This document shows positions 10,627 through 64,000 of a stretch of 64,000 bases of DNA, piece after piece. Positions within the stretch are counted from its first letter, which is position 1; the number at the start of each line of letters is the position of its first letter. The position numbers and the translations under genes are program-made. The notes under the pieces are model-generated. The model was not told the origin of the DNA. It saw nothing but the letters and a program-made list of their open reading frames with translations, and did not search any database. Source of the DNA: Corynespora cassiicola (taxonomy: Eukaryota > Ascomycota > Dothideomycetes > Pleosporales > Corynesporascaceae); the NCBI GenBank assembly GCA_022059125.1, contig JAEUWY010000006.1, positions 806,001-870,000 on the forward strand, read 5' to 3'.

Positions 10627-13600
10627 ATGGCCTGGTGGCGTCGAGATCCGTCAATCTGGTGCCGCTCGCCCATCCATCGCTACACCAATCGTGCCTTGCG
10701 TGACAACGAAGCTGCCATACGGACCCGCTGCTTCTCGAGGTCGAAGCCCAGCTCCGCTCAGCACAAAGATGACGATGACTCCAAGAGGCCCCAGGGGCTT
10801 ACTAACCTCCAATGGCTGCAGCTCCAGCACTATCGCCGCTGGAAGAAGCGACTCCAAGATGATCCGTATCGTGCCCTGTTTGGCGCCAGCGAGGACATGC
10901 TGAAGGGTAAGGGACTAAAGGACTGGCACTGGGTGTATAAGAGCTTCCCCAAGTGGGTTTTTGAAGACCAGGGAGATGGAGAGGCTGGGAATGGTGAGTA
11001 GTGGGAGGTCAATCAATGGCTACATTTGCTGACCGGGTCGCAGCTGCTTCTCGGGGAAAGAGGGATAGGTCAGCCGACAACTCCCAGTCCAACTCTGCGC
11101 CAGATGCAGCATATCCCAAGAAGGTCAAGCTATCTGACGAAGAACTTCCTAGGCCAAAGGGACGCATATTCCCAGAGCCTTCGTTCAGGTCATCGCGATT
11201 TGAACGTGACGACTATCGTACCGGCGTATCTTCTCCCTCCGACACCAGACGGCCTGGTGCACTGCATTCAGCCGATCAACCCACACATAGACACAAAATG
11301 GAAGAGCTTGATGAGACCGAAGCTTCTGCTGTTGGCCAAGATATCAGTTGGAAACCTGAAACATCGGGTCCTCGGGAGGAGGCGATTGGGAAAGGCTCCC
11401 ACGGCGCTTCCGACTCAAGCTCAAGGGATAGTCAAGCGAAAGATGCCAACTCTCCAAAGGAAGAAGCATCAGTTCGAGAAGCATCCTTTATTGAGGAATT
11501 TCTTGTTCAGCCGCCTACACATGAGGATGGCGTTGTCAGCAAAAAGGACAACGAGAAGGAGTGGAGGCAAACCGTATTGCAGAGGAGAGTCGAGATTGGA
11601 GAGTCGGACCAGCCTAACACAAAGCGAAATCCACAAGATTCTACTTTTGTAGATGCCACCTTCAAAAATGGCCATCTTTCGACACGTTCTGAGCAAAACG
11701 AACGATTCCAACCAGCAATGGCAAATCGGGGTCAATCGCCAACTTCCCCACCTCCACCTGCACCAGCACCAATTCCCTCTTCGCAAGCATACGAGAGTGA
11801 CTGGTATATTCGCCCGACCATGTCACTGCACAAAGACACTCCAAGTGAGATCCCCGCATCACCTGCCCCTAGAAGATCAACGGCAGGAGTACTTCGCCAG
11901 CTCCCAGAGGATGATCTCGACCTCCTCAGTGCCGCCGATATTCGAGCGTCTATGGGTCGCAAGAGGGCGAATAGCTATACTTTCCCTACAAGACAGGAGT
12001 TGGAAAAGAACTACAAGGAAGTTCAGCTGGCAGATAGTGGGCTACACCCATTGATAGAGTCAAAGATAGTGAGCGACCAGCATGTTCGACGCAAGGAGCG
12101 AGCGCTTCAGTCAGCACAGACATCAGAAGAGGCACAAGAAATTTACCAGGAGTCCAAGACACAAGAACCTGCAACAGTCCCGGAATCTACACCCGAGTAC
12201 GATGTTGGTCCGTTGACAAGGTGGCTCCATAGATGTGGGGACGTCTTTGCTCGAAATTTCTGGCAAGAGCCCATTACCGCAGCCAATTCTCACATCAACC
12301 TTCCCGACCATTTCGTCAGAGGCATCAAGTCTGGTGTCAGAATTGACCGCGATGCCAGAAAGCAAATTGAAGAAGATCTGGCTGAGGCTGTCCCGGCTTC
12401 CAAGACGCTCCTGACCCGCTTGAAGGCAGATGACGAAAAGTTCGACACTGCACTCAAAGCACTTCAAACGCAGCGTTTCAATCCGATGCCAATGAACTAC
12501 AACAACACGCCTCGGAATAAGGTGGCAATTGACCGCAGAGTTCAAGAACTTCGGGATCATATCACACAAACACACGAACTTTGCAGTGAAGCGTTGCGCT
12601 CTCTTGATCATGTAGAGAATGACACCTTGAGAAACTCCGAACGGCTGCAAAGGAAGCTGGTTCTTGCTGCCGAAGTTGTTCAGAAGAGTTACAAGCTGAC
12701 ACGAGCCATGATATTCGGGCTCCAGGCGAGGCTCAAGAGCGAAAAGGAGGCTCAGGATGAGCGAGTTCTCTTGAACTTCCTCGACCATCTCCTCTCGATC
12801 CAGGACACAAAGCTTGCACTGGGAAAGGTCATCGACAGGGCGATGCATGTTTACGGTGTGCTACCTAGTATTGCAGAAAAGCAGGCAGAAGGAGATGAGC
12901 AAAATGGCGAAGTATCCTCCAGTTTCTCAGCGACTGAGAGCTCAACAGAGACGTCGCAATCGCCTACATCCGAAGCTAACCCCGCCTCTAAAATTATTCC
13001 TAGCAATGCAGTAGCAAACATGAAACTCCAGGACGAGATCCAAGCTCAGAAAACAGCGATGCGGGGCTTGTCCGATGACGGATATTCACGTCCGCCCAAA
13101 GAATCAACAATCAAGTCCTTCGCTGAGCCCAATCCCCTCGCCAACAGCCTATTCAGGCCATTTTCTATGCAATTTGAAAGTTTAGGGAAAGATGTCGACA
13201 CAGAAGCCGAAAAGACCAAGGCAAGCATGAAGTTGAAGCTTGACGATCAGAAACTTGTGAGAGAGGTCAGAAGGGCATATGAAGATATTTACGGCCCCAT
13301 CACCATACATCACCGTCAGTTTGCGGGCAATGACCGTCCTCCGAGAGTGGAGGTTGAGAAAGCAGCCGAAACAACTTCTTCTTCAGAGGATGTGACTGAG
13401 AAGCTTCAGGAGAATTCACACGAGGCCATACCAGCTCATGCGGTCATTGACGAGCCAGTCATGCAACAGCAAAGTAGTGTGGTGGATCCTACACCTCAAG
13501 TGACAGAAGAGAAAACCAATTCGGCTCGACAGACCGACAACGACTTTTCGAAAGTAGTGCCTGCCACAGTGCTGCCCAAGACTTCACCTGTCGAGGAGTC

Positions 13601-14318
13601 ATCTGCATCAAAGCTCGAAAAAGACAAGCCGCTACGCACAGAGAAGGCAGCTGTGCTCGATGAAGAGTCCGATTGCTCTGGGCTCGACGGTTCTATCAAC
13701 CATGAAATACCCGAGTATACAGAACAGGATGCAAAGCTGGCAGCAGCGTCTACGACTTATGAAATTCTGACGTACGACGCTCAGAACGATGAATTATCGA
13801 TAATCACATCCACGGCACCTGGATCACGAGACACTTCGCCTCCGATACCCCTCCATGAAGCACTTTCTATTCTTGAAAACCCAGCCAAATTCATCCCGCA
13901 CATCAAGAATTGGGAGGTTGTAAGGGCAACACCGACTATGCTCGCTCTACGCACTGATCTAGACGCGGCCGAACCCACTTCCAACATCAGGACCGTCAAA
14001 TTCCCGGTATTGGGCGAGACTGAGGGCAAGGAAGACGAATGGAAGCACATCAATCCTGTGGACGGTACCACTAGACTAAGCCCAACAGGATTTGTGGGCA
14101 ATGGAGTCGAAGTCGAGGAATTGGAGAGGGATTTTGAGGAGAGGAGACGAATGGCGGACGAGCACAGCAAAAAGTTTGAGGAAAAGGAGCCTCGGTACCG
14201 CGCTAAGAAGGATGGAAGGGAAAGGAAGGGAGGCGGTGCCGCGAGTGTCCTCAAGACTGCCATCGTTGCAACTGCCGGGTGCTATATTGTAGGCGTGATT
14301 GGGGAACTTCTAAGATAG
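10627..14318 (+). CDS. Unrecognised 1213-aa protein with C-terminal membrane segment
   Basis: Exon 1 10627-10993, intron 10994-11043 (GTGAGT...GTCGCAG, 50 nt), exon 2 11044-14318. The N-terminus is basic, with few acids in the first 40 residues (MAWWRRDPSIWCRSPIHRY, TRCFSRSKPSS), resembling a mitochondrial presequence. A conserved-looking block (NLQWLQLQHYRRWKKRL, DPYRALFGASEDML, WVYKSFPKWVFED) follows. Next is a long Ser/Glu-rich disordered stretch, then a helical, coiled-coil-like middle from GPLTRWLHRCGDVFARNFW through SLDHVENDTLRNSERLQRKL. A second disordered part precedes an ordered C-terminal block (FIPHIKNWEVVRATPTMLALR, LSPTGFVGNGVEVEELERDF) and a final hydrophobic segment, TAIVATAGCYIVGVIGELL, at about 1194-1212. 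Proteins of this layout are often called 'serine-threonine rich protein' in filamentous ascomycetes. I assign no function; mitochondrial membrane location is inferred. Confidence 0.8.
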
Positions 14319-32846: not shown

Positions 32847-34460
32847 CACACCCGCCTGCTCCGCGTCGCCACCTCCCGCGCAATTGCTCCGGCCATGTCG
32901 CCCATGGCCGGGAGAAGCAACTTACGCGTACTCGCAGCGCCGGATAACGGGCCCCCTGAGATCGATCTGCGATCAAGCTTTGGGGCCCCGCAATATTCAC
33001 CGTCTTCCCCAGTCCGGCTGTACGAGCTCGCTGCTTCGGCCAAATGACATCAGCTCATCTCACTCCATCCTGCCCAGTTGATGTCATGTTGGCCCGCCTT
33101 CCGCCCGCATCCTAAACGTAATTGCGAAGCCACAACGTGGCAGAAACTGTCGTCGGCCCCATCAAGGAGGCGTGGGCAACAAGATCACCGCAACACAAAA
33201 CTAGGGGTCCCGGGCGTTTTGCAAATTTTATGGCTGACAACTCAGGGCCACTAGCCACATCATGCGCGACCGTCAATGAGTATCCCCGCATCAGGTGGAA
33301 CGGCCGTGGAACCTTTTGCTACAAGCGCCTTTCGAGCAATTCTCGCCTCCTGCCGTCGCCAGGAATCCGGGGTACACCGGCCCGAAGCAATTCAGGGTCG
33401 AGATATCTGTCCTTCTTCGGTCCCATAATGTCATCCGGCCCTCCTTTGGATCCAGAACATGAAAACTTCTTCACTGAATGACGTCGTCTTCCGCCCGTCG
33501 GCCTCGTTCCGCTCTCCATTCTGTCGAGTTTATTGACGGAACAATCATTGTCCGTACCATGGTTGTTGATGTCGATCTATCGATGATCTCGCTCAACCGA
33601 ACAAGTTGCCGTCTCACGTATATACGCAATTTACTCTCAAAAAGGTACCTGCATGCTCTGTGGGGTGTGGATCGATGCACTCCAGATTTCTGTGCATGTC
33701 TTGCAGATAAGGCCGCTCTGTTGGGCCATGTCCGTGCCTACAGATGACCTCAACTTTATCCCCAAACACCATCTCTAGGGCGACAAGACCCCCTTTACAA
33801 TTATCCTCCTCGTCCAAAACCTTGTGTCTTCTAACCTTTTTGCCGATGTTGCTTACTGCCAGAGTATATTTCCTGGCTCGCGTTCAGCGCGGCTCTAGCG
33901 TCTTTGCCTCTTCGATTCCTTCAGCACATCAATCTCGGTTCAATTTCTGTTTATTAGTGTCGATAAACGGAATGATATCGGAGAGTTCCACGATTAAGTG
34001 CTAACAACCTAACCCCAAGCCCAGGGCCGATGCCATGCTGATCTCATCAGCGATAACACCATCATGTGCCACGACACAATTGCAAGCGCAGCTGCCGGAT
34101 CCATGATTGCGGCAGACGACATCGTGCATATCTCATACAACTGGTCCATAGATCTTCAGTTTGAAAAGGAAGGCGCAGGATAACATTAGCCTATCTGTAC
34201 CTAGGTAGTTGGCGAATCTTTCGATAACCATACCAGATCTTCGATCAGTTGCGTCCCACGGGCCAGACTCTTCAACAAACTTTGAGTGCGTTGATCATAC
34301 ACAGTCTGGCAACGAATCTCGATGGTAACATGATCATCTGACCTGTACCCCCACTCTACCTTACCCAACCGCTTCTTCCTGGCTAGATACAACCGACTAC
34401 ACTTGTTCCTTGCCCAATGGCAAGCCTAGCATACCCAATTATTACATAACCATTCAGTGC

Positions 34461-34487
34461 GGTTGCGACGGTTGCGACGGTTGCGAC
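34461..34487. repeat. GGTTGCGAC triplicate
   Basis: Three perfect copies of a 9-nt unit, 236 nt past the CFEM stop codon. Confidence 0.9.
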
Positions 34488-34722: not shown

Positions 34723-35183
34723 TCAGTCGCAGGCTGGCTCGAGGAAGTCCAAGGCCGCTGTGCTCAAGAATTAGCTCTTGAGCTTGATACGTATTACCTA
34801 GCCCACGACGGGCTTGTGTTGACAAGAATGTGTGTGCAACATACCTAGGTTTTCTTCGATACTACACGTCTCTGAGACACAAGTGGTGACTGCATCAAAA
34901 AAGGGCCCACACAAACAGTCATCGTCAGCATTTGGGTCACAGCCCGCCTGGACCGCGCTCTCATTCCAGCAATCCATCTATCGACATGGTCAGCTGCCTG
35001 CAATTGCACTCCTGCACATCGATCGCAATCTTGTGAGAACAAATGACATACTGGACACTGCCCCACACTTGCTACTTGGGCGCCCTGGGGAGACGCAAGA
35101 GGGGACGCAACGGGTGACGCCAGAGGAGACGCAAGCGCTACAGCGCCTGCACCTGCGACTAAGCTGACGACGGAAATACGCAT
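34723..35183 (-). CDS. Small secreted CFEM-domain protein (99 aa, three exons)
   Basis: Exon 1 35183-35052 (44 codons), intron 35051-34978 (GTATGT...GCTGAC...GATAG, 74 nt), exon 2 34977-34845, intron 34844-34758 (GTATGT...GCACAG, 87 nt), exon 3 34757-34723. Signal peptide about 1-18 (MRISVVSLVAGAGAVALA), followed by a Pro/Ala/Ser repeat (SPLASPVASPLASPQ). Eight cysteines at 43, 47, 57, 65, 67, 77, 82 and 98 read C-x3-C-x9-C-x7-C-x-C-x9-C-x4-C-x15-C, the CFEM pattern. Asp62, three residues before Cys65, sits where CFEM proteins have the heme-iron ligand Asp. No GPI signal follows the last Cys, so it is probably secreted free. CFEM proteins act in heme uptake or as plant-infection effectors. 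Divergent from the bZIP gene. Confidence 0.88.
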
Positions 35184-35286
35184 ATTGGTTTTTTGGTGCG
35201 AAGGTTTGGTATAAACGATTGGAAGTCGACAGGACGATGCTATCGCAGTCGATAGTCCAGTTCCTTAACCTGACGGCGGCCGGCTC

Positions 35287-35292
35287 TATATA
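35287..35292 (-). promoter_or_regulatory. TATA box of the CFEM gene
   Basis: TATATA on the minus strand, in ATTATATAGAG, about 105 nt upstream of the CFEM start codon. Confidence 0.6.
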
Positions 35293-36538
35293 ATCTAGAG
35301 TCGCGGTATCAGCCATATTGGCCCTGAGCCACATTATCATGCGCGCTACCGTTTCGGCCTCCCGCGCGACGGTTACAAGACTGGTGCAACCGCAAGAGGA
35401 CCCTGGCAACATCCTGGCTCATCTTTCCGTATTGTCCAGCGCGCCGGATTGTAGAGACAGTGTTTGGCCTGTGCCTTTTGATCTCGCTCAATCAGAACCG
35501 CACATTCACTGTCACGTGTCGATAACGCAAGCCTGTATGTGCTTCTTTGGGCTAGTTCCCGCTCAATCCCCCCAGTCTAAGCTTTCCGGACACTCCCTAC
35601 GCACCGCTTCCCCTGCCACGACAGCCCAGCTTGTATCAAACAGCAGCTCCTTCACAGGCTGTGGCCACTATAGCCGACGATTCCTTCTCTCGCCATCGGA
35701 TCACTGAAAGCGATGCACCGCTGTGCTCTTGGGATGGGCACTGTTGCCGACTTCCGTGGAATCACACAACTCTCGAAGTACACATCCCACTATTCGGCCT
35801 TGGGGTAACAAGCTGCAACTTGATCCCGCGTTACAGATTGCCTCACCACTGGACTAGGACGCATTTTGCCCAGAATGCCACTTCTTGCTCTTTCCTTGGG
35901 CGTGTAAAGGAACTGGATGAGGGAAATTTGAGGACGAAAAGAAGACTCCGCATGCCAGTTTGTCGTTCAGCAAAGGGCCAAGTTCACACACTGGACTCGG
36001 CCGTCCCTCTGATCTGATGCTACGGAGCGGCGGCTGAGGAGGCAGCCGAGATGACTGAGTTGGCCCAAGCATGTCTCCGATGGCGCCGACTCGACGATGA
36101 GGGCATCCGACTGAGGCTTTGCAGTTTCAATGGCTCTTCACGACCAGTGTCATGTGTGCTCGAGTCCCAGTGCCGTCCCTCGTTCCGCGGACGCCCATCG
36201 GATGGAGACAAAGCCATCAAACAATTCTGAGAACGAGACCGAGCCAGAAGCTTGTCAGTCCCGAGACGGATGAAGATGTGCCATATCCCATCCACCGCTG
36301 TCGTGCATATTGCTCTTTTCGCAGTTCGGACGAGGTGCAAATCATCAGCGAGTCGTGGCTTCCCAGGTTCCAAGGTTGTTCGTTTGGCGTTAGTGGCTCC
36401 AACCAAGCGGCCCTTTCCCATCCTGTCGTGCATTTGTAAGCAGTCACGCTGGACGTCGCGGTGTAGCATCGCACTCTGTCCATATCTCCTTTCCACCAAA
36501 CAGACCCTAAAGACTCTAGAACAGCACGCCTGCCGAGA
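35293..36538. promoter_or_regulatory. Divergent intergenic region CFEM / bZIP
   Basis: About 1.25 kb. It must contain the bZIP promoter and upstream elements of the CFEM gene. Frames here are short and without motifs; I see no further gene. Confidence 0.45.
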
Positions 36539-59366: not shown

Positions 59367-60621
59367 ATGTTTATACGGCCTGGGTTCGTCGTGGTGATTG
59401 TTGGGTTCACCCTGACCAGTCTTTCAACCATTATTGTGGCCTTGAGGTATGTGCTTTTTGAAATCGAGCACGAAACAAGTATATATTGACCAGTGGCTTA
59501 GGTATTACTGTCGTTACTTTTTGATGGGGTCCATCGGCGCAACTGACCATCTCATGTTAACGGCTGTGGTAAGTGGCGTCAGTGCCGCTCAATGAGAGTT
59601 TTGCTGACTCGACAAGGTACTCACTTGGGGGAACACTGTTGTCAACTACTACCAAGACGAGACAAGCCGCAATTTCCGCCCCAGCTTCTTCAGGAAACCT
59701 GTAAGTCGAATTGATGCCGACTGATGCCAGCTCACCCTAACCAACTCATAGGAGAAGCGACCACAGATAGAGAGTGCCCTTCGTGGTACACTGCTGACCT
59801 GGTACATCTATCGCATGACGTATGTGGTTGCACTTTGCTTCGTCAAGCTTTCCATTCTATTCTTTTACCGCGCAATCGCCTCCAACATCAAGTTTCGCCG
59901 CATCGTCTATGTTATGATTGGGTTCGTCTGCACCTACTCTTTTGCATCCACCGTTGCTGCGGCCTTCCAATGCGCAAACCCAGTGAACGCATGGGATACG
60001 ACGGGTTACCTGGCTCAATTTGACGGGAACCCAAACACGAAACGCCCAAAGTTCAAGTGCTATGATCCAACGACGCTGTGGGTCCTCACAGCAGCGATCA
60101 ACCTTTTCACCGACGTGGTTATATTGCTTCTTCCCATCCCCACGCTCCTTGGCCTGAGAGTGCCCATGAACAAACGGCTGGCGCTGATTGGCATCTTCTC
60201 CGTCGGCATCATGGCCATTGTGGCATCCTGTGTTCGAATGTGGGTCATGGCCCTGTGGTCCGAGTCGCCGTTCAACTCTGCGCGTTTTGGTGCGGACCTG
60301 CTGCTCTGGGGTCAGGTGGAAACAAACTCGGGCATCATCTCAGCGTCAGTGCCATTCCTCCGCCTCATTTTTCGGCGAAGGGCGTCATCGTCCAAAGCTG
60401 GATCGAATGAGAAGGGAAGGAGAGTTATAAGCCCGCCGAAGCCGATCCCAACGGACAACAAGCCGTTGGAGATGGACTCTGAGGCCTTCTTTGATGGGCC
60501 GGACAAGGGGCCCGACGGGGACCCGCAGTGGAAACCTTTCATCACGGTTCCCGCGAGCTTAGACGACAGTACGAGGGGGAGCATTGCGGGAGAGCCCGTG
60601 GGCCCGCACACGACGGTCTGA
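59367..60621 (+). CDS. Fungal rhodopsin-domain (SAT4-like) 7-TM membrane protein, second copy
   Basis: Exons 59367-59446, 59502-59568, 59617-59700, 59752-60621; 366 aa. Seven hydrophobic helices: FVVVIVGFTLTSLSTIIVAL, GATDHLMLTAVVLTWG, LLTWYIYRMTYVVALCFVKLS, IVYVMIGFVCTYSFAST, LWVLTAAINLFTDVVILLLPI, LALIGIFSVGIMAIVASCVRM and a seventh around SGIISASVPFLRLIF. Family marks are KLSILFFYR after helix 3, CYDPTTLWVLTAAINLFTDVVILLLPIP, and NSGIISASVPFLRLIFRRR before the cytosolic tail. The tail is Lys/Pro/Asp-rich. The set fits the rhodopsin-domain family better than the copy at 7259. Role unknown; relatives include PTH11-like surface sensors and cluster membrane proteins. Confidence 0.92.
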
Positions 60622-61730
60622 GCTGGATGTGGGGACGACGGGACATGGTCAACGAGCTGGCCCCAGCCGGAGGGGGAGGGAGGGGCACACTTGGAGGTTC
60701 GGCAAGATAGCTGGCCTGCTCCGCCGCTACGCTGATCGCCACGCACGAATGTAAGTCATAGTTTTGGCTTCCGCCCTGCTGCATGCTGACACCGCTACAG
60801 AGGGAGGCTGGCACACGCTCCGCTTATATAAAAAGCCTGAATAGCGGGGTATGCGAGGGGGCCGTCTTGGAGAAGGTGCACCGCATTCGCCACTGGCCCT
60901 GGCGACTACAGGCAGGCCAGGCGGTGAATGCTGCCGTCGGCGGAGGCCCCCAAGTCACCGGACTGCTGGCTGGAATTGCGCCATCTGACAAGATGAGGGG
61001 GAGGGAGTGGTGGGCGAGGGACACGGAGGGGGGGAGAGGGCCAATGGTGCATCCGTTCCAAAACAGAGGCAGCGTGGTGAGAGGACTAGTCGATCGCAGT
61101 GGCATTGCAATGGCGGAGCGTGTGGCACCGTGGGAGTGCCTATGTATGAATAGCATGCCTGTTCCAACGCCCGACGTGCCAGCCCTGTAGCGAGGCGAAG
61201 GCCCTGGGCTAGGCCGCTTCCGGCAACCAGCCAGAGCGGATCGCCAGCCAACCAGACGAGGGACGACGCGCCGGCAGAGGCTCAGCCTGGCTCGAGGGGC
61301 CCGCCGAGGTCACGTTGTAGACGTACGCGCCGCCCGCCGCTCGCCGCTTGGTGCCCGTCGCTCGTCGCTCGCCGCCCGTCGCTCGTGAATTCCCGTCTGC
61401 TGCTGCTGCCCGCCGTCACTGACTCTAAACTAAACTCCGCTCGAACCGCAGGCCCCGAGCCCGACCCAAAGCTCCCCACATTGCGTGCGTTTATGTCGTA
61501 CACCGCCCAGCGCACCATCGCCCACCCGCTTTACTTCTTCCATGTATAAAGCCTAGTCTCCAATCGTGGCTTCCTCACGCTCCTTCAAGCTCTTCCTGAT
61601 CGCAGTCGCCATCTTCATCTCCCTCTCCGCAACCCTGGCGACTGTGCGCTTCTCTGGCCGCGCTCCCTCCCTCCTGCAGTACCTCAAGAGCTCCAAGTTC
61701 CCGCTCTCGACCCAGGCCCAGCGCCCGCTT
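60622..61730. promoter_or_regulatory. Upstream region of the oligopeptidase gene
   Basis: About 1.1 kb. It has a repeat cluster of GTCGCTCG and CGCCGCCC units at 61337-61385, a small AUG at 61493 (17 codons then stop), and from 61557 an open, coding-like extension in frame with the oligopeptidase (see findings). Confidence 0.45.
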
Positions 61731-64000
61731 ATGAACAGCAGCATGGCGCCCTCTCACTACAAGAAGCCCCCGCAGCTGCCGCCCAAGTTCACGGCCACGC
61801 CCTCGTCGCTCGTCGAGGACACAAAGAAGCTGGTATGTGCTCATTGACCCTCTCCCATGCTCCCCGTGGCCTCTACAACGTCTCCCCCCGGAGTCGCCTC
61901 CTACCCCACTGCCGCCGATCGCAAGCTGACAGCGCCAAGATTGAACGGTCGAGAGGCGTCCAAGATAGCATCGTCAAGGATGTAACCGCCGACAAGGCTT
62001 CCTTTGAGAATGTCGTCCTCCCCGTCGCCTACGACGACAACAAGATGGCCATCGAGTCCCACATCATTGGCTTCTACCAGGCTGTGTCCACCGACCAGAA
62101 GTTGCGCGATGCCTCCACCGAGGCTGAGAAGCTGTTGGACGACTTTGGCATCGAGTCGAGCATGCGGGAGGATGTCTTCGGGCTCGTCGACGCTGTGCTG
62201 AAGAAGGACGAGAAGCTCCAGCCCGAGTCGCAACGTCTGCTTGAGAAGGATCACAAGTCGTACATTAGGAACGGTCTCAGCCTGCCCGCGGGCCCCAAGC
62301 GCGACCGCTTCAAGGAGATCAAGAAGCGCTTGAGCGAGATTAGCATTGCGTTCCAGAAGAACCTCAATGAGGAGCAGGGTGGTCTCTGGTTCACACCTGA
62401 GGAGCTCGACGGCGTGCCAGACGACCTCGTGTCTTCGCTGAAGAAGGGCGAGGGCGAGAACGAGGGCAAGATTTGGCTCACGTTCAAGTACCCGGATCTT
62501 TTCCCCACGCTGAAGTACGCAAACAACGCCGAGACGCGCAAGCGCGTCTTTGTCGAGAACGAGAACAAGTGCAACCAGAACGTGCCTTTGTTCCGTGAGG
62601 CAATCCTCCTCCGTGACGAGGCGGCCCGCCTGCTCGGCTACAAGAACCATGCCGAGTTCCGGATAGAGGACAAGATGGCCAAGACGCCCAAGACTGTGGA
62701 AGACTTCCTGGGTGACTTGCGGACTCGCCTTGCCCCTGGTGGCAAGAAGGAGATTGAGAAGCTGCTCGAGCTCAAGCAAAAGGATCTCAAGGAGCGCAAG
62801 ATCGAGGATGGAACGGCCTCTCAGTACTTCCTCTGGGATCACCGCTACTACGATCGTCTGCTGCTCGAGCAGGACTACCAGCTCGACCACCAGGTCATTG
62901 CAGAGTATTTCCCTCTGCAGACTACCATCCAGGGCATGCTCAAGATCTTTGAGGAGCTCTTCGGCTTGGTCTTTGTCGAGATTGTTGGCGACGACCGCAC
63001 GGCTCTCGCTGACGGTGGCAAGGGCTCTGATATCGTATGGCACGAGGATGTCCAGGTCTTCAGCGTCTGGGACGACGAGGCTGAGGGATCTGAGTTCGTC
63101 GGCTACCTGTACCTTGATCTCTTCCCCCGTGATGGAAAGTACGGACACGCTGCCAACTTCAACCTCCAGCCCGGCTACATTGATGAGAACGGAAAGCGTC
63201 GTTACCCCGCTACCGCCCTTGTGTGCAACTTCTCCAAGCCCACCCCTAAGAAGCCTTCGCTTCTCAAGCATGACGAAGTTGTCACGCTTTTCCACGAGCT
63301 CGGTCACGGCATCCACGACCTTGTGTCGCGGACGACTTACTCCCGCTTCCACGGCACAAACACCGTCCGCGATTTCGTCGAAGCCCCTAGCCAGATGTTG
63401 GAGAACTGGTGCTGGACTCCTTCGCAGCTCCGCTCTCTCTCCCACCACTACTCTTACCTGTCTCCAGAGTACGAGGCTGCGTACAAGGAGTCAGCGGCCA
63501 CTGACAAGAAGCCTTCGGAACAGATTCCTCATTCGCTGATTGCCAACTTGATTAGCACAAAGCATGTCAATGACGCCCTATTCAACCTGCGACAGCTCCA
63601 CTTTGGAATCTTCGACATGACGGTGCACACACCTGCTAGCCACGAGGAAGTCGAGAAGTTGGACATCACCTCGACGTACAACAGGCTCAGGCATGAGATT
63701 AGTCAGTTGGATGGCCCCGAGACGCTTGACAAGAAGGGTGACTGGACATGGGGTAATGGCCAGGCTACCTTTGGTCATTTGATTGGAGGATACGATGCTG
63801 GGTAAGTTTTTGTCTTGGTTCCTTGATACTTTCGAATATAGGCTAACATTGCACAGCTACTACGGCTACCTCTCATCGCAGGTCTACTCTACTGACATGT
63901 TCTACACGGTCTTCAAGGACGAACCCATGAATGGCAAAGAAGGCCGCCGGTACAGGCACACCGTCCTCGAGCGGGGTGGCAGCAAGGAGGAAATGGACAT
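61731..64000 (+). CDS. M3-family zinc oligopeptidase (saccharolysin/thimet type), 3' end missing
   Basis: Exons from the first in-frame ATG: 61731-61832, 61940-63801, 63857 to beyond 64000; introns 61833-61939 (107 nt) and 63802-63856. The sequence has VKDVTADKASFENVVLPVAYD, RDEAARLLGYKNHAEF, the catalytic HELGH (HExxH, about residues 486-490 in this model) in FHELGHGIHDLVSRTTYSRF, and FVEAPSQMLENW with the third-ligand Glu. These are the M3 metalloendopeptidase marks (Prd1 in yeast; cytosol and mitochondrial intermembrane space), which cut short peptides. A second ATG at 61743 (MAPSHYKKPP) has the better start context. The C-terminal about 100 residues lie past the window. Upstream, the same frame is open from 61557 with no ATG. 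Confidence 0.93.

What the first reader, a model, noticed from the sequence alone, without database searches (positions are those of the whole stretch)
34723..35183. A 99-aa CFEM protein hidden in three short exons
Seen: no single frame shows a CFEM domain, but joining exons at GTATGT/AG sites gives a signal peptide plus eight cysteines in exact CFEM spacing and the Asp three residues before Cys4. The third exon is 35 nt and supplies the last Cys. Known: CFEM proteins bind heme or act as infection effectors. Inference: this is a free, secreted effector-like CFEM protein with an unusual Pro/Ala/Ser repeat after the signal peptide, which gene finders may miss.
Basis: partly seen in the sequence, partly recalled or inferred. 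Interest (0 to 1): 0.75.

Follow-up and report, generated by a model that had tools for sequence, protein, structure and literature searches.

The report
Small secreted CFEM protein gene, Corynespora
This is a real, ordinary three-exon gene of a plant-infecting fungus for a small, probably secreted protein of a well-known fungal family (CFEM), with close relatives already annotated in many related fungi.

Summary
Exons 35183-35052, 34977-34845 and 34757-34723 (minus strand) join to an intact 99-aa protein that Pfam calls CFEM (39.3 bits, cut-off 22). 26 of 30 aligned annotated relatives follow it through both joints. Unspliced relatives break at these joints. The window comes from Corynespora cassiicola or a very close relative (100% match). 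The gene is single copy there.

"Hidden" and "effector" need tempering. Orthologs are already annotated in dozens of species. No near-identical protein surfaced, but a paper reports one small CFEM protein in C. cassiicola that I could not compare. The Asp at the heme-ligand position is present here but Ser in 5 of 44 orthologs, so heme binding is plausible, not shown.

Extras: the mature protein has no Lys, Arg or His, so trypsin-based proteomics would probably miss it. The Pro/Ala/Ser repeat is four copies of ASP(L/V/Q) in a segment where 11 of 44 orthologs carry a KR/RR site. It reads as seven X-Pro/X-Ala dipeptides, perhaps a trimmed propeptide.

The parts
35052..35183 (-). exon 1, codons 1-44: signal-peptide-like stretch (1-18), ASP(L/V/Q)x4 repeat, Cys1
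34978..35051 (-). intron 1, 74 nt, phase 0, GTATGT...TAG, branch-like CTGAC
   Evidence: 25 of 27 partial relatives start or carry an insert at this joint
34845..34977 (-). exon 2, codons 45-88 plus one base: Cys2-Cys7 and Asp62; alone scores 25.7 bits as CFEM
34758..34844 (-). intron 2, 87 nt, phase 1, GTATGT...CAG, branch-like CTAAT
   Evidence: partial relatives stop or carry an insert at or near this joint
34723..34757 (-). exon 3, 35 nt: AALDFLEPACD (first codon shared with exon 2) and stop, with Cys8
35089..35135 (-). 12-bp tandem repeat, 3.9 copies, coding for ASPL-ASPV-ASPL-ASPQ (residues 18-33)
35184..35340 (-). putative core promoter: TATATA 109 nt and CCAAT 138 nt upstream of the ATG
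   Evidence: consensus matches only, no evidence of function

Best explanation
An intact, conserved, single-copy Pleosporales gene for a small soluble secreted CFEM protein. After signal-peptide removal (and perhaps trimming of a short N-terminal spacer) the eight cysteines pair into a compact, very acidic helical domain. Its most likely work is extracellular: it binds ferric heme or iron through Asp62, as Csa2 of Candida does, for nutrition or detoxification at the hyphal surface, in saprobic as well as plant-infecting life. Shown: gene structure, family, conservation, single copy. Inferred: secretion, fold, ligand, role. The gene and its family I hold at about 0.97; the figure below is for the mechanism.
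For: Gene and family. Free protein: C-terminus one residue after Cys8. Asp62 falls on an Asp of Csa2 in the D-x-x-C motif of the profile alignment to 4y7s (E = 0.032, above the usual threshold), and a Csa2 D80A protein, which lacks the iron-coordinating Asp, cannot bind heme (PMC7175094, passage). D is kept in 39 of 44 orthologs. All-helical model of ortholog P0009 (10-residue blocks from 31 to 80 at pLDDT 88-94).
Against: 5 of 44 orthologs have Ser at the ligand position, so the ligand is not indispensable in this family. The two residues after Asp62 are acidic (DDDC), whereas in the 17 Asp-type CFEM pieces of the same genome the next residue is Phe (8), Ile (4), Leu (2), Ala, Gln or Thr (1 each), never acidic. 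Fold searches did not return Csa2, which is inconclusive. No expression, secretion or binding data.
Confidence: 0.45

Rival explanations
1. Apoplastic effector: the protein acts on the plant, for example by dampening immune responses, and iron is secondary.
For: Secreted CFEM proteins of Verticillium dahliae suppress plant cell death and two of them contribute to virulence (PMC8867779, abstract and passages). The host fungus infects crops, and one CFEM protein was listed among its putative effectors (PMC7346487, passages).
Against: Conserved as an ortholog across an order with non-pathogens (lifestyles recalled); single copy; not in an AT-rich compartment. In V. dahliae the two broad suppressors are Asn-type at the ligand position, and this one is Asp-type.
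Confidence: 0.2
2. Structural or surface-active acidic wall protein without a heme ligand: it stabilises the wall or films at interfaces.
For: Five of 44 orthologs lack the ligand Asp while the Cys frame and the acidity are kept. A 104-aa CFEM protein of Fusarium solani stabilises emulsions when aggregated (PMC11147851, abstract and passages). CFEM proteins of Aspergillus fumigatus affect wall stability and not virulence (cited in PMC11176510, passage).
Against: Asp is kept in 39 of 44 orthologs; the protein is strongly acidic, unlike the hydrophobic F. solani one.
Confidence: 0.25
3. Spurious exon chain: no such gene.
For: No RNA evidence could be examined; no near-identical protein entry.
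Against: Homologs that run over both joints, and conserved break points.
Confidence: 0.02

Closest known systems
Pleosporales small CFEM orthologs (e.g. P0001 Coniothyrium glycines, P0009 Melanomma pulvis-pyrius)
   Same: Eight Cys, CDPNxDDxCLCGPFFDAV-like core; partial relatives break at the same two joints
   Different: Here the spacer is ASP(L/V/Q)x4; in 11 of 44 orthologs it contains a KR/RR site, in others it is shorter or Pro-rich
Csa2 of Candida albicans (PDB 4y7s)
   Same: CFEM Cys frame and Asp three residues before Cys4; soluble, not anchored (recalled)
   Different: Only weak sequence similarity (E = 0.032); one more residue between Cys3 and Cys4 here
Verticillium dahliae VdSCP CFEM proteins
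   Same: Small secreted CFEM proteins; Asp-type like seven of the nine
   Different: Not Asn-type like the immune suppressors VdSCP76 and VdSCP77
Fusarium solani C7Z2B1 (bioemulsifier)
   Same: About 100 aa with a single CFEM domain
   Different: 10 Cys, hydrophobic, pI 7.45; here 8 Cys and 13 acidic residues without any basic one in the mature part

Membership tests
CFEM domain (PF05730) | Score above Pfam's gathering cut-off | tested here: met
   39.3 bits vs 22, residues 37-99
CFEM domain (PF05730) | Eight Cys with the published spacing | tested here: met
   C-x3-C-x9-C-x4-D-x2-C-x-C-x9-C-x4-C-x15-C against the pattern quoted; all intervals met
CFEM domain (PF05730) | Literal residues Pro at -2 and Ala/Gly at +1 of Cys1 in the published pattern | tested here: not met
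   G at -2 and P at +1. The Pfam model, which is the test used for membership, accepts the protein with a wide margin
Heme-binding CFEM hemophore (Csa2/Rbt5 type) | Asp ligand three residues before Cys4 | tested here: met
   D62, aligned with an Asp of 4y7s; Ser in 5 of 44 orthologs
Heme-binding CFEM hemophore (Csa2/Rbt5 type) | Helical-basket fold | tested here: inconclusive
   Ortholog model is all-helical but PDB searches did not list Csa2
Heme-binding CFEM hemophore (Csa2/Rbt5 type) | Binds ferric heme | not testable with these tools
   needs purified protein
Plant-directed CFEM effector | Secreted in planta and alters host response | not testable with these tools
   signal-peptide-like N-terminus seen by eye only; no SignalP, no expression data
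Kex2-processed pro-domain (K2PP) protein | KR/RR or LxxR after a disordered N-terminal segment | tested here: not met
   No Lys or Arg after residue 2; 11 of 44 orthologs have KR/RR between the signal peptide and Cys1

The most novel reading that the evidence does not exclude
The N-terminal spacer of this CFEM family is a propeptide removed by two alternative routes. In many Pleosporineae a Kex2-like site releases the CFEM domain. In Corynespora and several other lineages a stair of X-Pro/X-Ala dipeptides right after the signal-peptidase site is eaten stepwise by a Ste13/DPP-IV-type dipeptidyl peptidase until it stops at Gln-Gly, which then caps as pyroglutamate. In C. cassiicola the stair was lengthened by tandem duplication of the ASP(L) unit to seven steps (SP-LA-SP-VA-SP-LA-SP|QG).
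Probability: 0.15. Interest if true: 0.5.

Novelty: new member of a known kind. Interest (0 to 1): 0.3.

Why it matters
It corrects the picture from a hidden species-specific effector to an order-wide single-copy secreted CFEM gene, which makes it a weaker candidate for a host-specific effector but a good test case for what free CFEM proteins do in fungi generally. Two practical points follow. The mature protein has no trypsin site, so ordinary secretome proteomics would probably miss it. And its 35-nt last exon may be mispredicted in some relatives, which would remove the eighth cysteine from their records. If the propeptide idea is right, the N-terminus used in recombinant work must be chosen with care.

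Tried and rejected

The dipeptide-register test is weak. The cleavage sites come from a simple (-3,-1) rule of mine; 42 of 45 sequences got a site and some look wrong (e.g. P0046, P0020, P0009). Of the 25 sequences labelled as lacking a Kex2-like site, 18 have a shuffle p of 0.05 or more and 6 have a run of zero; P0009 has a longer run off register (3) than in register (1). Pro at +2 is nearly constant and gives the first step for free. The shuffle p (0.0005 for this protein) ignores that a 4-residue tandem repeat is one event. The Kex2 label in that script is broad, and the sequences are related.

Full report
What is there. On the minus strand, 35183 to 34723, three exons separated by two GTATGT introns give an intact 99-aa reading frame with eight cysteines. 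Both introns have one branch-like site starting 16-17 nt from their ends. The spliced product scores 39.3 bits against Pfam CFEM (cut-off 22), and the only other family listed is at E = 0.27. Exon 2 alone is picked up as CFEM in a six-frame scan of the genome at 25.7 bits.

Is the splicing right? Homologs decide. Of 41 proteins found at E up to 0.001, the best (Coniothyrium glycines) is 63% identical over 99% of the length. I aligned 30 annotated ones; 26 follow through both joints, while P0018, P0021, P0024 and P0025 diverge after the second (by eye). The remaining hits are mostly short, apparently unspliced translations from environmental DNA. I examined 27 such or partial proteins from both homolog searches. 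At the first joint, 21 of 27 begin at residue 45, 46 or 47; 4 (P0031, P0032, P0055, P0063) carry an insert of 18-25 aa after residue 44 or 45; 2 start inside exon 2. At the second joint, 11 stop at residue 88 exactly, 7 run on to 91-93, 8 carry an insert of 17-20 aa after residue 83-89 and resume to 98-99, in line with in-frame reading through intron 2, and one (P0063) runs to 97 without an insert. Both intron positions therefore look conserved. No RNA data could be examined.

Which organism. An ORF at 61550-63805 (peptidase M3) is 100% identical over 83% of its length to Corynespora cassiicola Philippines, with the next named species at 89%. The genome holding the window has 44.35 Mb, close to the 44.8 Mb reported for that isolate (PMC7346487, passages). 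C. cassiicola belongs to Pleosporales, family Corynesporascaceae.

How widespread. A profile search gave 70 proteins; the named ones belong to Pleosporales genera as far as I recall or looked up, except Zopfia, which NCBI places as incertae sedis. Both searches see only relatives that share short exact words, so absence elsewhere is not shown. The gene has one copy in its own genome at protein and DNA level, beside 22 other CFEM matches, which are exon-level and a lower bound. The DNA around it is not AT-rich.

The protein. The signal-peptide-like stretch ends in an Ala-x-Ala motif at residue 18 (by eye; no SignalP). The C-terminus lies one residue after Cys8, so no GPI or membrane anchor fits. 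The mature part (19-99) has 13 acidic residues and no Lys, Arg or His; the program gives pI 4.05, which is the lowest value it returned for any protein and probably its floor. Of 38 proteins with a complete domain by my pattern, this one included, 15 have a domain free of Lys, Arg and His, so acidity is a family trait. It follows, as inference, that trypsin would not cut the mature protein.

The ligand position. Asp62, three before Cys4, is present in 40 of 45 family sequences (39 of 44 orthologs); the other 5 have Ser. Three of the 47 named relatives given to one search had no matching core (P0038, P0054, P0057) and are not in these counts. A profile of the family aligns with Csa2 (4y7s) so that Asp62 meets an Asp of Csa2, at a weak E of 0.032. 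Among 20 of the 22 other CFEM pieces of the genome, 17 have Asp, 2 Asn and 1 Thr there. In Csa2 the Asp80 coordinates the heme iron, and D80A cannot take heme from albumin (PMC7175094, passage). In V. dahliae, Asp-type and Asn-type members differ in function (PMC8867779, abstract and passages). This protein is Asp-type.

The spacer. The Pro/Ala/Ser stretch is a 12-bp tandem repeat that multiplies the Ala-Ser-Pro at the signal-peptide end, whose Pro is constant in the first alignment (31 of 31). In 11 of 44 orthologs the same segment holds a KR or RR site (three further RR lie in or before the signal peptide and are not counted). The five of these species that I looked up are Pleosporineae; the rest I assign from memory, and other Pleosporineae such as the Didymellaceae (recalled) lack the site. 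A review describes KR/RR and LxxR as the motifs of Kex2-processed pro-domains (PMC8528282, passages). Corynespora lacks any basic residue there. Instead, from Ser19 on, seven dipeptides in a row end in Pro or Ala and then Gln-Gly follows; read one residue off register the run is zero. In the 25 sequences, this one included, that the script labelled as lacking a Kex2-like site, the mean run is 2.0 in register and 0.4 off register, and Gln follows the run in 9 of 25; in the 17 labelled as having one, the means are 1.0 and 0.18. The genome has four DPPIV_N matches. This is suggestive only; its weaknesses are listed under Tried and rejected.

Structure. AlphaFold on ortholog P0009 with 25 relatives gave an all-helical domain, mean pLDDT 77.3, 88-94 in the 10-residue blocks from 31 to 80. 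PDB searches gave no significant match. That neither supports nor excludes the Csa2 fold.

Verdict. The effector label is not backed. Heme or iron binding is the best single guess, at about 0.45.

Noticed in passing
window 34460-34487: Perfect 9-bp tandem repeat, 3.1 copies (CGGTTGCGA), downstream of the CFEM gene.
   Followed up: no
window 59752-60621 (+): Fung_rhodopsin (PF20684) ORF; the only CFEM match listed in the window is the gene studied here.
   Followed up: no
window 10998-14318 (+): 1106-aa open frame with no Pfam match at E 0.001.
   Followed up: no
L028, L029 (own genome): Two CFEM pieces with Asn instead of Asp at the ligand position, like the Asn-type members of V. dahliae.
   Followed up: no
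P0018, P0021, P0025, P0043, P0053, P0056: Six of 44 ortholog models lack a recognisable eighth Cys, possibly because the short last exon was mispredicted.
   Followed up: partly
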